This document shows, one piece after another, positions 20,452-24,698 of a DNA stretch of 64,000 nt (position 1 is the first letter of the stretch; the number at the start of each line of letters is the position of its first letter). The position numbers and the translations under genes were made by a program. The stretch lies in NCBI GenBank assembly GCA_019235715.1, contig JAFAKE010000070.1:32436-96435 (forward strand). The letters run 5' to 3'. The stretch is from Vulcanimicrobiota bacterium. Its GTDB lineage: Bacteria; Vulcanimicrobiota; Vulcanimicrobiia; Eremiobacterales; Eremiobacteraceae. Below the pieces are notes generated by a model. The model was given only the letters and a program-made list of their open reading frames with translations, searched no databases and was not told the DNA's origin.

Positions 20452-20997
20452 TTACTTCGGCCTGTCCTCGCCCGGCAGCGTGAACAATGTTCGCACGACT
20501 AAAGAGAATCCGGGCAACGCCGCGTGCTGCAGCGTCTCGTCCTCTCTGAGGATCCGGCTTCCGGCAGCGTCGCGGATCGTGATGGTTTTTCGTTGCGGGT
20601 CAACGAGAAATACGACTGCAGTACCGGCACCAAGGTAGACGCGCGTTTTTTCGTCGATGTCTGCCTGAGCATCTTCAGGCGAGCGCACTTCAACCACCGC
20701 GTCCGGTGAGACGCGGGGGATGTCGGTATCCTTAAGCTGCTCTAACGGCATGCGCGCGTACGACAGAAAGGCGATATCTGGCACGAGCGTCCGTCCGATT
20801 TCGCCTGGCGGTCGCACTTGGAAGTGCCACTCAGTGGCGGCCACTCCATTTTTCCGTTCGTGCGTCCACGCGGTGAGTGCCGACACGAACTCGCTTTGTG
20901 CGACAGCGTGCCTGCGCTTCGGGCTCACCTTTTGGAGAACCCGGTTGTTGACCCATTCGAGCGCCGGCTTGGCTTCCGGCAAAATGATTTCGTGCAT
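20452..20997 (-). CDS. Uma2 family (PD-(D/E)XK fold) protein
   Basis: VPDIAFLSYARMP...RVSPDAVVEVRSPEDAQADIDEKTRVYLGAGTAVVFLVDPQRKTI. Confidence 0.85.
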   Translation of the reverse strand: MHEIILPEAKPALEWVNNRVLQKVSPKRRHAVAQSEFVSALTAWTHERKNGVAATEWHFQVRPPGEIGRTLVPDIAFLSYARMPLEQLKDTDIPRVSPDAVVEVRSPEDAQADIDEKTRVYLGAGTAVVFLVDPQRKTITIRDAAGSRILREDETLQHAALPGFSLVVRTLFTLPGEDRPK

Positions 20998-21040
20998 GCG
21001 TACACGCGGATGATATCACGCCTGGCACTCTATCGTCTAG

Positions 21041-21059
21041 TTTACGGGCCGGCCGTAAA
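21041..21059. terminator. Inverted repeat immediately downstream of the WYL regulator
   Basis: TTTACGG-GCCGG-CCGTAAA, 7-bp perfect arms, 1 bp from the WYL stop codon; terminator or operator for Uma2 gene. Confidence 0.45.
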
Positions 21060-21060
21060 G

Positions 21061-22101
21061 CTAATCGGCGACCCAGTCGAATCGCAAGAGCCGTTCGTCG
21101 ACCGGCACGCGTTCAGCCCATTTGTGATCGGTGAGGATCGCGTCCGCGAAATGCCGAGCCATTTCGGCGGCTTCAGGCGGAGCCGTGATCTTGGCGTCAC
21201 CGCCAAAGCTGAGCACCCAGGCCACGATTTCTCGCGGATCGTCGACCTCGAAGATCATTTCAACGGAACCGTCAGCAAGATTTTTCCGCTTCACTTCAGC
21301 CGGCCAGCGCCGTGCGTTGACGTCAGCCGCTCGATTGCGGGCGAACCGGACGACGATGCGGAGAACATTTCTTTTTTCGGCAGGTCGTGTCGAGCCGTCA
21401 CCTGAGATGTAGATCCCGAAACTATGCTTCAACCAATTATCCAATCGCAGCTCTGCATCGGGCTTGAAGACGTCACCCTCTTTGCTCGCAGCCTCAGTCA
21501 TCCGATCGATCGCGAAAAATTTGGGATGGTGCGCGCCTTCCTCCGGCCCCCACACATAGATACGACCGGTGTAGTCGAATAGCTCGTATGGGGCGATCGC
21601 GCGACGAGATTCAACGCCGTCGCGGCTGCGGCGATACTTGAAGCGAAGGATGGTGTGATTGCGGACCGCACCTTCCGCCGTCTTGAGACAGTCGAAATAG
21701 ATCTTGTCCATGCGCGGCTGCGGTTGGCGCGGCGGCAGCTGTTCTGTCGCCGACGGGTCGAGTTCAGAAAGCTGCTCATCCCAGCGGTCTAGCTGCGGCC
21801 CGATGCCTTCCACGAATGGGCTCCCAAGCCGGGAGACCGCGACTCGCAGCAAGGCAAGCAGCTCGCGTTTGCGTGGATCCATCTTGGGCGCTTTAGAACG
21901 CGTCCAGCTTCCGATGACTGTGAACCTTTTGGTTTTCGCATTCCAGCGCAACCGGCAACCTTCGGCCGCAAGCTCGCGCTTGATGCGCTTCCAGGTGCTC
22001 GGGGAAAAGGTTTTTCCGTAGATCACCGCCGCGCGCCTGACAGTGACCTCGCGTTTTGTGTCGAGCTCTTCCAGCAGAGCCGCAAATGCTCTGGCCTTCA
22101 T
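21061..22101 (-). CDS. WYL-domain transcriptional regulator (wHTH-WYL-WCX)
   Basis: ILRFKYRRSRDGVESRRAIAPYELFDYTGRIYVWGPEEGAHHPKFFAIDRM; C-terminal FEVDDPREIVAWVLSFGGDAKITAPPEAAEMARHFADAIL. Confidence 0.85.
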   Translation of the reverse strand: MKARAFAALLEELDTKREVTVRRAAVIYGKTFSPSTWKRIKRELAAEGCRLRWNAKTKRFTVIGSWTRSKAPKMDPRKRELLALLRVAVSRLGSPFVEGIGPQLDRWDEQLSELDPSATEQLPPRQPQPRMDKIYFDCLKTAEGAVRNHTILRFKYRRSRDGVESRRAIAPYELFDYTGRIYVWGPEEGAHHPKFFAIDRMTEAASKEGDVFKPDAELRLDNWLKHSFGIYISGDGSTRPAEKRNVLRIVVRFARNRAADVNARRWPAEVKRKNLADGSVEMIFEVDDPREIVAWVLSFGGDAKITAPPEAAEMARHFADAILTDHKWAERVPVDERLLRFDWVAD

Positions 22102-22121
22102 GTCCTTGTTATCGGCTTCGT

Positions 22122-22142
22122 CCGGGTCAGATTCTGACCCGG
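22122..22142. promoter_or_regulatory. Near-perfect palindromic operator candidate between WYL gene and divergent operon
   Basis: CCGGGTCAGA-T-TCTGACCCGG, 10-bp perfect arms, 1-nt centre, 21 bp from the WYL ATG. Confidence 0.6.
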
Positions 22143-22230
22143 TCGGCTCGCGGCCGTCATGACGCCGACCGGTCCAGCACGCTATCCTTTTCGTGTAGAC
22201 GACGAATCATGGAAAGGACCGTGGATCGCG

Positions 22231-23073
22231 ATGAGAACGCCCAATGCTGACGACCTCGTGAACCAAGTGCTACGCGCTGCGAGCGAGGGTGACGGCGTCA
22301 CCCAAGACGATTTGCGCAAGCGCCTGACGTTTGCATTCGACATGTACGAGGGCAGCGCTGCCGCACCATCCCTAGCCCAGATCTTGCGCTTCAGCCGGCG
22401 CACCCATCGGGCGCAACAGCGCCTCCTCGAAGCCAAGTTGGTCTGTCAAATGCAGGGCATGCTGCGCACCACGCGGCTTGGCGAGGCATTCTTGCACGCC
22501 GGTTGCCGGCGCATAGACGAAGCCACACTTGCGCGCCTCGCGGAGTCCCTTCCCACCCAAGAATCGCTGCCGCTCGAGCAGGCGCAACCGATGCAGAGCG
22601 AGTTGGCTGATACGGAAGCTGCCGAATCCGAAAGCGAGCCGGTTCTTGATGCCAAGGCGCTGATGGCCGCAACGCGTCTGAAATATTATCGCCACGGCAA
22701 AGACCTCTATAGCGTCACGTTCGATGCCGACCTGCGCACGTGGACCCTGGAGATCTGGTTCTCTGGTCGCGTCGTGCGCGCGCGTACATTCGTGATGCGA
22801 GCGCCCAAGACCGGCCACGCGCGAGCGCAGCTGCTTGAGGCGGCGATGCGCGTCAACGAGATCGCGGTGCCGCATTTCTTCGTCGACGATCGCGATGGCT
22901 TGTACCTTGGCGTCGATGAACGCCAGGAGAATATCGATGCGGCATCGCTCCGCTCGCTGATCTTCACGCTGTTTTCTGTGGCTGCGGACCAGTACGCGCG
23001 GCTCTACCGCCTCGTCACGAGCGAAGACGCACTCGCTACGCTTGAAGCGGCGTACAAGAGGAGCGGATCGTGA
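22231..23073 (+). CDS. Hypothetical protein: N-terminal HTH-like region plus C-terminal YbjN-like region
   Basis: First gene of coupled operon; GVTQDDLRKRLTFAFDMYEGSAAAPSLAQILRFSRRTHRAQQRLLEAKLVCQMQGMLRTTRLGEAFL; domain calls are by eye only. Confidence 0.6.
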   Translation: MRTPNADDLVNQVLRAASEGDGVTQDDLRKRLTFAFDMYEGSAAAPSLAQILRFSRRTHRAQQRLLEAKLVCQMQGMLRTTRLGEAFLHAGCRRIDEATLARLAESLPTQESLPLEQAQPMQSELADTEAAESESEPVLDAKALMAATRLKYYRHGKDLYSVTFDADLRTWTLEIWFSGRVVRARTFVMRAPKTGHARAQLLEAAMRVNEIAVPHFFVDDRDGLYLGVDERQENIDAASLRSLIFTLFSVAADQYARLYRLVTSEDALATLEAAYKRSGS

Positions 23074-23393
23074 TCGATTCCGCGTCCGCGAAAGACCTCC
23101 GCTTCACCACGCATGCGCTGGTCCGCTACGTCGAGCGTCATGTCGATGCCGGCGCCGTTAAAATGTTGCGCCGGCGCGGACTGAGAGACGGCGCCATCCT
23201 GCGCGCGCTCGCGCCTCGGTTTGACGCGCAACTTGAGTTGTTTCGCTCAGGTGTGAGCGCTTGCGCACACCGCGGATTACGCGCGCAGAGCATCGCTGGC
23301 GTGCCGTTTCGGCTCAAGGTCGGACGCATGCGTGTGGTGATCCACAACGGGCGGTGCGTAACCGTGCTTCCCGCAGATCGGATGGCGTCCTGA
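23070..23393 (+). CDS. Small hypothetical protein, DUF4258/RelE-like pattern
   Basis: GTGA overlap with previous stop; FTTHALVRYVERHVDAGAVKML...FRLKVGRMRVVIHNGRCVTVLP. Confidence 0.55.
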   Translation: MIDSASAKDLRFTTHALVRYVERHVDAGAVKMLRRRGLRDGAILRALAPRFDAQLELFRSGVSACAHRGLRAQSIAGVPFRLKVGRMRVVIHNGRCVTVLPADRMAS

Positions 23394-24046
23394 TGAAAGA
23401 TCTAGTCGTATCCCCCTCCTCATTCGGATTTCTGTACGAAGAGTGCCCAGCGTGTTACTACAATTCCGTGCATGGACTCCGCCGCCGCCCGTCGACGCCG
23501 TTTCCCTCTATCTTCACGCAAATCGACCGCGCGATGAAGGCGCGCTTTTCCGCTCCTGGATGGCATGTTGTGGCGGGCGAACGGCGCCGCTTCAAGATCG
23601 CCGCGTCCGACGGCTGGGTGCGCTCGGCTCCCATTCCCGTGCGCGGCCACGACCTCACGCTTACGATCCGCGGCACGTTCGATTCAGTACTGCGCTTCGA
23701 AGATGGCCGATTTGGCTTGTGCGATTGGAAGACCGCGCCCGTCAAAGCCGATCTGCTGTCCAAGTACTCGCGTCAGTTGCACGCGTATACCTTCGCGCTC
23801 GAACGCCCGGCACTCGATGAGCCTCAGCGCATCGACGAACTCGGCCTTGGTGTGTTCGAGCCCGCTGCATTTGACGTGAACGCCGGCGCTCAGGCGAGCC
23901 TCACGGGGGGACTCACATGGTTGGCGATGACGCGCGACGACGTCCGCTTCGCGCGCTTCTTGCAGAGCGTCGGGCAACTGCTCGCGCTTCCGAATGCGCC
24001 GCCGCCCTCTCCGAGCTGCGCCTTCTGCGCGTATCGCGCCGCATGA
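23393..24046 (+). CDS. PD-(D/E)XK nuclease superfamily protein (RecB/Cas4-like) with two CxxC pairs
   Basis: TGATG overlap; SPSSFGFLYEECPACYYN; GTFDSVLRFEDGRFGLCDWKT (D...DxK); SRQLHAYTFAL (QxxxY); C-terminal SCAFCAYRAA. Confidence 0.78.
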   Translation: MKDLVVSPSSFGFLYEECPACYYNSVHGLRRRPSTPFPSIFTQIDRAMKARFSAPGWHVVAGERRRFKIAASDGWVRSAPIPVRGHDLTLTIRGTFDSVLRFEDGRFGLCDWKTAPVKADLLSKYSRQLHAYTFALERPALDEPQRIDELGLGVFEPAAFDVNAGAQASLTGGLTWLAMTRDDVRFARFLQSVGQLLALPNAPPPSPSCAFCAYRAA

Positions 24047-24432
24047 ATGACGCGATCTTCGTCTTGCTGATGTTCGGCTGTTATATCGCGGCGCCGATCG
24101 TCGCGTACCATCGCGGCCAGCGCTATTGGTGGGTGCACATCGTCCTCGGATGGATGGCTCCCGAACTGGCGCTGTTCATCGCGTTCATGCCAGTCTTCAT
24201 TCTGCGGAGTAGCCCGAAGAGCGTCCTCAAGACGAGATTGGATCGCAACGCGCTTCACGCGCAGCTGCGGCGATTGAAATGGGCGATCTGCCGCCGATCG
24301 AGATCGCCGGAATCGTTCCGGGCGCCGCCGAGACGTTTTTCTGGCGCCAGCGCGCGCAGTACGGTGAGCGGCTACGAGCGGGCCATAACGCCGTTGATGT
24401 CGTGTGGGGCCCGACGGGAACCATCTTCGTGA
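24043..24432 (+). CDS. Small membrane protein; 3' half overlaps next gene in another frame
   Basis: ATGA overlap; MNDAIFVLLMFGCYIAAPIVAYHRGQRYWWVHIVLGWMAPELALFIAFMPVFIL; after about residue 75 the translation looks off-frame. Confidence 0.5.
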   Translation: MNDAIFVLLMFGCYIAAPIVAYHRGQRYWWVHIVLGWMAPELALFIAFMPVFILRSSPKSVLKTRLDRNALHAQLRRLKWAICRRSRSPESFRAPPRRFSGASARSTVSGYERAITPLMSCGARREPSS

Positions 24433-24698
24433 GCGACCAGCGCATCGCGTTCAAGTCATCCCATGGCTTCATTTCCGCCGGTTACGAGCGCATCTTCGGC
24501 TACGATGCCTATCATGACGGCTTGGGTTTGCAGATCGAAGAGCTGGGCATGATCCGCTTTTTGACGGGAGACGAGTGCCTCGGCGTGCTGTTCGATAATG
24601 TCGTGAAGCGCTTGAGTCTGCTCTCTCGCGCCGCCGCTGCCAGAAGCTCGCCCATGCCGCGATTGCTCCCGCAACGTCCGGCCGCTAATGGGACGTAG
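24279..24698 (+). CDS. GRAM/PH-like domain hypothetical protein
   Basis: FFWRQRAQYGERLRAGHNAVDVVWGPTGTIFVSDQRIAFKSSHGFISAGYERIFGYDAYHDGLGLQIEELGMIRFLTGDE. Confidence 0.55.
   Translation: MGDLPPIEIAGIVPGAAETFFWRQRAQYGERLRAGHNAVDVVWGPTGTIFVSDQRIAFKSSHGFISAGYERIFGYDAYHDGLGLQIEELGMIRFLTGDECLGVLFDNVVKRLSLLSRAAAARSSPMPRLLPQRPAANGT

What the first reader, a model, noticed from the sequence alone, without database searches (positions are those of the whole stretch)
20452..24698. WYL-controlled, translationally coupled cluster with a RecB/Cas4-like nuclease: candidate undescribed defence or nucleic-acid-processing system
Seen: a WYL regulator (minus) diverges from a plus-strand operon whose junctions overlap (GTGA at 23070, TGATG at 23391, ATGA at 24043). 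Products: 280-aa HTH/YbjN-like protein; 107-aa protein with a DUF4258/RelE-like pattern; PD-(D/E)XK protein with DxK and QxxxY motifs and two CxxC pairs; small TM protein; GRAM/PH-like protein. A Uma2 PD-(D/E)XK-fold gene follows the WYL gene on its strand. Established: WYL repressors such as BrxR and CapW sit next to anti-phage operons, and RecB/Cas4 nucleases with Cys clusters bind 4Fe-4S. Inference: this gene combination matches no defence system I recognise. A housekeeping or stress function cannot be excluded.
Basis: partly seen in the sequence, partly recalled or inferred. Interest (0 to 1): 0.8.

Follow-up and report, generated by a model that had tools for sequence, protein, structure and literature searches.

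The report
WYL-regulated chaperone-nuclease operon in Eremiobacterota

Summary
The cluster is real. Its genes, its divergent layout and its overlapping junctions are confirmed. The conserved core is not the nuclease. It is a WYL-WCX repressor plus a wHTH/TY-chaperone (YbjN/CesT fold) and/or a 107-aa lineage-specific protein (all 5 copies known in the phylum lie within about 1.3 kb of the WYL gene). Relatives add an ADP-ribosylglycohydrolase (ARG), an HD hydrolase, a CAAX protease or a restriction-type nuclease. WYL + TY-chaperone + ARG + interchangeable nucleases is the 'ARG-centric' conflict system predicted by Iyer et al. 2022 (PMC9503650). The window copy has no ARG, nor has its genome, so it is an ARG-less variant and not a plain member.

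New here: an 11-bp palindrome, TGACC-S-GGTCA, recurs in the core intergenic regions of the family. In one genome its only two exact copies lie upstream of the WYL gene and of an unlinked chaperone gene, which points to one WYL regulon. The PD-(D/E)XK gene has all catalytic motifs, but its homologues are solitary or phage-borne: an accessory slot. The 'TM' and 'GRAM' genes are probably one gene split by a frameshift.

Anti-phage function is plausible but untested; a stress or protein-quality role remains a serious rival.

The parts
20452..20997 (-). Uma2-family PD-(D/E)XK-fold gene (181 aa), 63 nt downstream of WYL on the same strand; facultative neighbour
   Evidence: Pfam Uma2 2.2e-21; G008 also has an Uma2 gene (35% identical) between WYL and the chaperone, in another place and orientation
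21061..22101 (-). WYL-WCX transcriptional regulator (346 aa) with N-terminal HTH, divergent from the operon
   Evidence: Pfam WYL 5.5e-11, WCX 1.9e-13; 41-49% identical orthologues head the cluster in relatives
22119..22145 (.). candidate WYL operator: two copies of TGACC-S-GGTCA (22119-22129, 2 mismatches; 22135-22145, 1 mismatch), seen as the perfect inverted repeat GGGTCAGA-T-TCTGACCC (22124-22140)
   Evidence: same palindrome in the homologous intergenic regions and at unlinked chaperone genes
22231..23073 (+). 280-aa protein: N-terminal wHTH (Mrr_N-like) + C-terminal TY-chaperone/YbjN-CesT-fold domain
   Evidence: YbjN in 7/10, CesT in 5/10, Mrr_N in 4/10 homologues; Foldseek to T3SS chaperones, prob 1.00
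23070..23393 (+). 107-aa protein, lineage-specific family with conserved HxxVRYxERxxD motif; predicted beta-alpha-alpha-beta-beta-beta fold, weakly RelE/HigB/DUF4258-like
   Evidence: (5 genomes, all beside WYL)
23393..24046 (+). PD-(D/E)XK nuclease (217 aa, RecB/Cas4-like, PDDEXK_1) with intact D97, D111-x-K113, Q128-L-H-x-Y132 and Cys pairs 18/21 and 209/212; accessory gene
   Evidence: Pfam 2.2e-9; alignment of four homologues; solitary homologues in G013 and G125, phage-type homologue L075
24043..24698 (+). membrane (24043-24279) + GRAM/PH-like (24279-24698) domains, one gene in relatives, split here by a frame change near 24255-24280
   Evidence: both halves align to one 269-aa protein of G107; codon-position GC switches frame at about 24279

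Best explanation
An inducible conflict-type (probably anti-phage) operon: an ARG-less variant of the predicted ARG-centric systems. Shown by sequence: a WYL-WCX repressor-type gene is transcribed away from a coupled operon; a palindrome TGACC-S-GGTCA lies in their shared promoter region and recurs at the cognate loci of relatives, including chaperone genes unlinked to the WYL gene. Inferred: a WYL dimer holds the operon off by binding these palindromes. A small ligand made during infection or damage (ADP-ribose-, nucleotide- or RNA-end-type, by analogy with WYL/Nudix regulators) binds the WYL domain and releases the operon. The wHTH/TY-chaperone binds modified or misfolded proteins, or doses the small 107-aa protein; the 107-aa RelE/DUF4258-type protein acts on RNA or the ribosome; and the slot behind it carries an interchangeable effector: ARG or HD hydrolase in relatives, the RecB-like nuclease with a membrane/GRAM partner here.
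For: Core recurrence: WYL|TY-Chap-ARG in G001 and G117, TY-Chap-ARG in G089, WYL|ARG-107-HD in G013, WYL..TY-Chap-107-CAAX protease in G008, WYL>107 in G003 and G010. 107-aa family found in 5 of 149 genomes, always beside WYL. ARG (PF03747) exists in only 2 of 14 family genomes, both times inside this cluster. Restriction-type neighbours vary: PDDEXK_1 + Uma2 (window), Uma2 (G008), Mrr_cat-like coiled-coil protein beside WYL in G003, G010, G013. Operator: at most 2 mismatches in the 13 core regions tested, absent at the unlinked WYL clade of G004-G006. Genome-wide exact matches: 2 of 2 in G011 lie upstream of WYL and of unlinked TY-Chap; 2 of 3 in G012; of 13 matches elsewhere, 12 fall inside predicted ORFs; crude chance 1e-20 for 6 of 19. 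Literature template: Iyer et al. 2022; BrxR is a WYL repressor that binds inverted repeats beside defence genes.
Against: No phage-challenge or expression data. No PADLOC system matched beyond generic WYL/Cas4/Uma2-type models. ARG, the anchor of the predicted system, is absent from the window cluster and its genome. The nuclease is not co-conserved with the core. The consensus palindrome was chosen after looking at these same regions, so its p-value is optimistic; an unlinked chaperone gene in G013 has only a 3-mismatch site, no better than chance. Flanks show no defence island, tRNA or integrase.
Confidence: 0.45

Rival explanations
1. A stress or protein-quality-control regulon, not defence: the WYL regulator senses a nucleotide or NAD-derived damage signal and induces a chaperone, ARG and RNA/DNA-processing enzymes to repair ADP-ribosylated or damaged macromolecules.
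For: Chaperone fold is the most confidently identified downstream product; within genus g8 the chaperone and WYL loci are stable and ordinary-looking (83-90% identical neighbours); no phage or plasmid record carried the genes in the searches made.
Against: Patchy presence even between congeners (not found in G007, which is only 72% complete; different contents in G000 and G008), different flanks in every genus, interchangeable nuclease-type neighbours, which is the pattern of conflict systems.
Confidence: 0.28
2. The PD-(D/E)XK and TM/GRAM genes are passengers: a solitary, phage-related RecB-like nuclease inserted behind the WYL-chaperone-107 core and co-transcribed by position only.
For: Homologues in G013 and G125 stand alone without the operator and one sits among phage genes on a viral contig; TM-GRAM homologues are elsewhere in unrelated genomes.
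Against: TGATG and ATGA junctions in the window show tight translational coupling, also seen for other cargo in this slot; a passenger could still be recruited as effector.
Confidence: 0.15
3. A toxin-antitoxin-chaperone-like unit: the 107-aa RelE/HigB-type protein is a toxin, and the wHTH/TY-chaperone fusion is its antitoxin plus chaperone, under WYL control.
For: Order chaperone then 107 with overlapping junctions in G000 and G008; weak HigB/RelE and DUF4258 structural matches; wHTH fused to a peptide-binding fold.
Against: 107 occurs without a detectable chaperone gene in G003 and G010, and chaperone without 107 in G001, G011, G012, G117, odd for an obligate pair; Foldseek E-values are not significant.
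Confidence: 0.1

Closest known systems
ARG-centric host conflict systems predicted by Iyer, Burroughs, Anantharaman and Aravind 2022 (PMC9503650, Fig. 7)
   Same: WYL regulator, TY-chaperone (YbjN/CesT fold), interchangeable REase-fold genes, HD phosphatase in one relative; ARG in relatives G001, G013, G117, G089
   Different: Window cluster and genome lack ARG; carries a 107-aa family and a RecB-like nuclease not named there; chaperone fused to a wHTH; Eremiobacterota is not among the lineages named in the section read (actinobacteria, planctomycetes, proteobacteria)
BrxR / CapW family WYL repressors of defence operons
   Same: HTH-WYL-WCX layout, divergent or leading position, inverted repeats in the promoter
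   Different: No BREX, CBASS or other recognised defence operon adjacent; distinct sequence clade found only in Eremiobacterota-type genomes here
RecB/Cas4-type PD-(D/E)XK nucleases (Pfam PDDEXK_1; Cas4, AddB, MGME1)
   Same: G-x-x-DS, D-x-K, QLHxY motifs and C-terminal CxxC
   Different: No CRISPR genes, no helicase domain; fourth Fe-S cysteine not invariant; solitary or phage-linked homologues
Toxin-antitoxin-chaperone (TAC) modules
   Same: A small RelE-like protein next to a DNA-binding/chaperone partner
   Different: Chaperone is TY-fold, not SecB-like (general knowledge), and partners are not obligately paired

Membership tests
ARG-centric conflict system (PMC9503650) | ADP-ribosylglycohydrolase gene in the neighbourhood | tested here: not met
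   No PF03747 in the window cluster or the 96%-complete genome; present in the clusters of G001, G013, G117, G089
ARG-centric conflict system (PMC9503650) | WYL or Nudix one-component regulator | tested here: met
   WYL and WCX Pfam hits; orthologues head the clusters
ARG-centric conflict system (PMC9503650) | peptide-binding chaperone such as TY-Chap | tested here: met
   YbjN 1e-4 and TY-Chap1 8e-3 among homologues; Foldseek to CesT/SycE/YbjN
ARG-centric conflict system (PMC9503650) | coupled phosphatase (rhodanese-phosphatase, HD, calcineurin, HAD; present in a little over 55% of the systems) | tested here: not met
   None among the window operon proteins; HD_4 in relative G013
ARG-centric conflict system (PMC9503650) | variable tightly coupled REase-fold accessory genes | tested here: met
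   PDDEXK_1 and Uma2 in the window, Uma2 in G008, Mrr_cat-like in G003/G010/G013
ARG-centric conflict system (PMC9503650) | acts against phage-catalysed ADP-ribosylation | not testable with these tools
   needs phage challenge; only a prediction in the paper too
BrxR/CapW-type WYL defence regulator | wHTH + WYL + C-terminal WCX/dimerisation domain | tested here: met
   WYL and WCX by Pfam; the N-terminal HTH rests on conserved sequence only
BrxR/CapW-type WYL defence regulator | inverted-repeat operator upstream | tested here: met
   TGACCSGGTCA palindrome; binding itself not tested
BrxR/CapW-type WYL defence regulator | next to a recognised defence operon | tested here: not met
   PADLOC gives only generic WYL, Cas4-like and Uma2-type matches
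RecB/Cas4-like PD-(D/E)XK nuclease | intact catalytic motifs (D, D-x-K, QxxxY) | tested here: met
   invariant in four homologues
RecB/Cas4-like PD-(D/E)XK nuclease | four-cysteine 4Fe-4S site | tested here: inconclusive
   Cys18, Cys209, Cys212 invariant; Cys21 replaced in G125
DUF4258 / RelE superfamily (107-aa protein) | significant profile or fold match | tested here: inconclusive
   no Pfam match; phrog_8252 E 1e-3; Foldseek HigB/RelE E 0.4-0.8, phage DUF4258 protein prob 0.80 but E 0.19
Toxin-antitoxin-chaperone module | obligate toxin-antitoxin pairing | tested here: not met
   107 without detectable chaperone in G003 and G010; chaperone without 107 in G001, G011, G012, G117

The most novel reading that the evidence does not exclude
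A WYL repressor acting through one 11-bp palindrome runs a lineage-specific defence regulon in Eremiobacterota, in which a wHTH/TY-chaperone fusion holds a RelE-like 107-aa toxin in check and the last slot is a cartridge for interchangeable effectors (ARG, HD hydrolase, CAAX protease, RecB-like nuclease with a membrane-bound GRAM partner): a chaperone-gated toxin system of a kind not described.
Probability: 0.1. Interest if true: 0.75.

Novelty: new variant of a known kind. Interest (0 to 1): 0.45.

Why it matters
The ARG-centric systems were predicted from gene neighbourhoods only, and none of the papers I could search reports a test. This work adds a lineage not named in that section, an ARG-less variant, a lineage-specific 107-aa component, and above all a concrete operator that links unlinked genes into one regulon. 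That turns 'WYL next to odd genes' into a DNA-binding and induction test that can be run directly.

Tried and rejected
The nuclease as the defining component: rejected, as it is not co-conserved. CRISPR/Cas4 adaptation role: only weak Cas4 profile matches and no CRISPR genes in the cluster. Plasmid- or phage-borne cluster: no match for the nuclease in phages or plasmids, nor for the 107-aa and WYL proteins in plasmids; the 107 alignment found nothing in viral contigs. RNA element in the locus: none. Mobile element with tRNA: none in the window. PDB sequence searches with the 107-aa and chaperone alignments gave nothing useful. An early gene call joined the G001 WYL ORF to upstream sequence; corrected by homology.
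Full report
What is there. The window lies on contig 5 of a 2.5-Mb, 96%-complete MAG. The WYL alignment recovers MAGs titled Candidatus Eremiobacterota/Eremiobacter, with contigs that match the handles of close relatives, so this is that phylum. The junctions GTGA, TGATG and ATGA are real. Codon-position GC supports coding in each.

The last two ORFs are probably one gene. In G052 and G107 the membrane segment and the GRAM-like domain form one protein of 271 and 269 aa. The window's membrane ORF aligns with residues 43-108 of the G107 protein (E 5e-6) and its GRAM ORF with residues 89-263 (E 5e-28). Codon-position GC changes frame at about 24279. Whether this is a true mutation or an assembly error cannot be told here. 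These relatives carry the gene away from any WYL cluster in the stretch read, so it is not core.

Domain assignments. WYL and WCX domains are clear. The 280-aa protein has no Pfam match itself, but among ten aligned sequences PF10722 YbjN hits seven, CesT five, Mrr_N (a winged HTH) four and TY-Chap1 three. Its predicted structure is weak overall (pLDDT 65) but better over the C-terminal half, which matches type III secretion chaperones and YbjN in the PDB (Foldseek prob 1.00, E from 2e-5). The 107-aa protein folds with pLDDT 82 as helices followed by a three-stranded sheet. Its best named hits are HigB, RelE and a phage DUF4258 protein, none significant, and there is no Pfam hit; I treat RelE/DUF4258-like as a lead. 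The nuclease is PDDEXK_1 (2e-9) with G-x-x-DS, D-x-K and QLHxY invariant in four homologues. Three of its four paired cysteines are invariant.

What is conserved. I searched the 149 available genomes of the phylum with each protein and read the neighbourhoods. The nuclease has only two other clear homologues in the phylum, both solitary, plus one among phage genes on a viral contig. The recurrent unit is different: WYL|chaperone-107 in G000 and G008, WYL|chaperone-ARG in G001 and G117, chaperone-ARG in G089 with a distant WYL gene a few kb away, WYL|ARG-107-HD in G013, WYL>107 in G003 and G010. The 107-aa family occurs in five genomes; it is within about 1.3 kb of the WYL gene in four, and in G008, where Uma2 and a pRiA4b-type gene are inserted, on the same 5-kb contig about 2.2 kb away. 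ARG (PF03747) occurs in two of fourteen genomes of the family, both times inside this cluster, and is absent from the window's genome. ATGA, GTGA or TGATG overlaps recur between chaperone and ARG or 107 and behind 107 in other genomes. A Mrr_cat-like coiled-coil nuclease candidate (weak Pfam, conserved GD...EAK) stands on the far side of WYL in G003, G010 and G013. Flanking genes differ between genera, so the cluster is not in fixed core synteny.

The operator. The 129-bp divergent region of the window holds a perfect inverted repeat, GGGTCAGA-T-TCTGACCC (expected by chance in 64 kb at up to 3 mismatches 0.21, found with 0). Comparing the regions of relatives shows that the shared unit is TGACC-S-GGTCA, of which the window holds two copies (22119-22129 and 22135-22145). 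The thirteen core intergenic regions each have a copy with at most two mismatches (expected 0.002-0.05 per region); the WYL clade of G004-G006, which is not linked to the module, has none. A scan of the fourteen family genomes for the exact pattern gives 19 sites: six lie upstream of WYL, chaperone or 107 genes, 12 of the rest inside predicted ORFs, one upstream of a cmk-like gene. In G011 the only two sites of the genome are upstream of WYL and of the chaperone, which are on different contigs. A binomial estimate gives 1e-20, optimistic because the consensus was drawn from some of these regions; the G011/G012 unlinked pairs are the least circular part.

How it most likely works. Shown: gene content, coupling, a palindrome shared by regulator and regulon. 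Inferred: WYL represses by binding the palindrome, as BrxR does with its inverted repeats (PMC9122601), and is released by an infection- or damage-related ligand. The chaperone, the 107-aa protein and the interchangeable effector are then made together. Iyer et al. 2022 (PMC9503650) predicted WYL/Nudix + ARG + phosphatase + TY-chaperone + variable REase systems as counter-measures to viral ADP-ribosylation; the Eremiobacterota clusters with ARG fit this well. The window copy fails the ARG and phosphatase tests, so I call it an ARG-less variant that works like such a system at the level of regulation and chaperone, with function inferred.

What remains open. Whether it defends against phage at all, what the WYL ligand is, and whether the 107-aa protein is a toxin. 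A stress/quality-control role is the strongest rival. The nuclease may be a recruited effector or a passenger. (In the summary, 'within about 1.3 kb' holds for four of the five 107-aa genes; the G008 copy is about 2.2 kb from its WYL gene.)

Noticed in passing
window 24043-24698: Membrane and GRAM-like ORFs are one gene in G052 and G107; the window copy is split by a frame change near 24255-24280.
   Followed up: yes
L061 5028-6455, L062 4957-6210, L063 4258-5664: A coiled-coil protein with a weak Mrr_cat/DUF2130 match and a GD...EAK motif stands beside the WYL gene in three genera; a candidate new REase effector of these clusters.
   Followed up: partly
L062 8474-10348: A Schlafen group 3-type helicase gene (Pfam 4e-86; PADLOC AbiO/Nhi-like) lies immediately beside the 107-aa gene in G010.
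   Followed up: partly
L075 4450-5229: A viral contig carries a homologue of the PD-(D/E)XK nuclease with the same motifs and both CxxC pairs, among phage genes.
   Followed up: partly
L063 7059-8092: The WYL gene of G013 is broken into two ORFs in different frames.
   Followed up: no
L068, L069, L070: A second WYL clade (38-40% identical) in genus g5 stands divergent from a NusA-like gene (named from sequence only), without the palindrome and without the module.
   Followed up: partly
L115 3537: The single exact TGACCSGGTCA outside the module and outside predicted ORFs lies 38 nt upstream of a cmk-like gene in G013.
   Followed up: no
L065 7634-8265: A small antitoxin-like and PIN-like toxin pair (named from sequence only) lies between the distant WYL gene and the ARG-chaperone pair of G089.
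   Followed up: no
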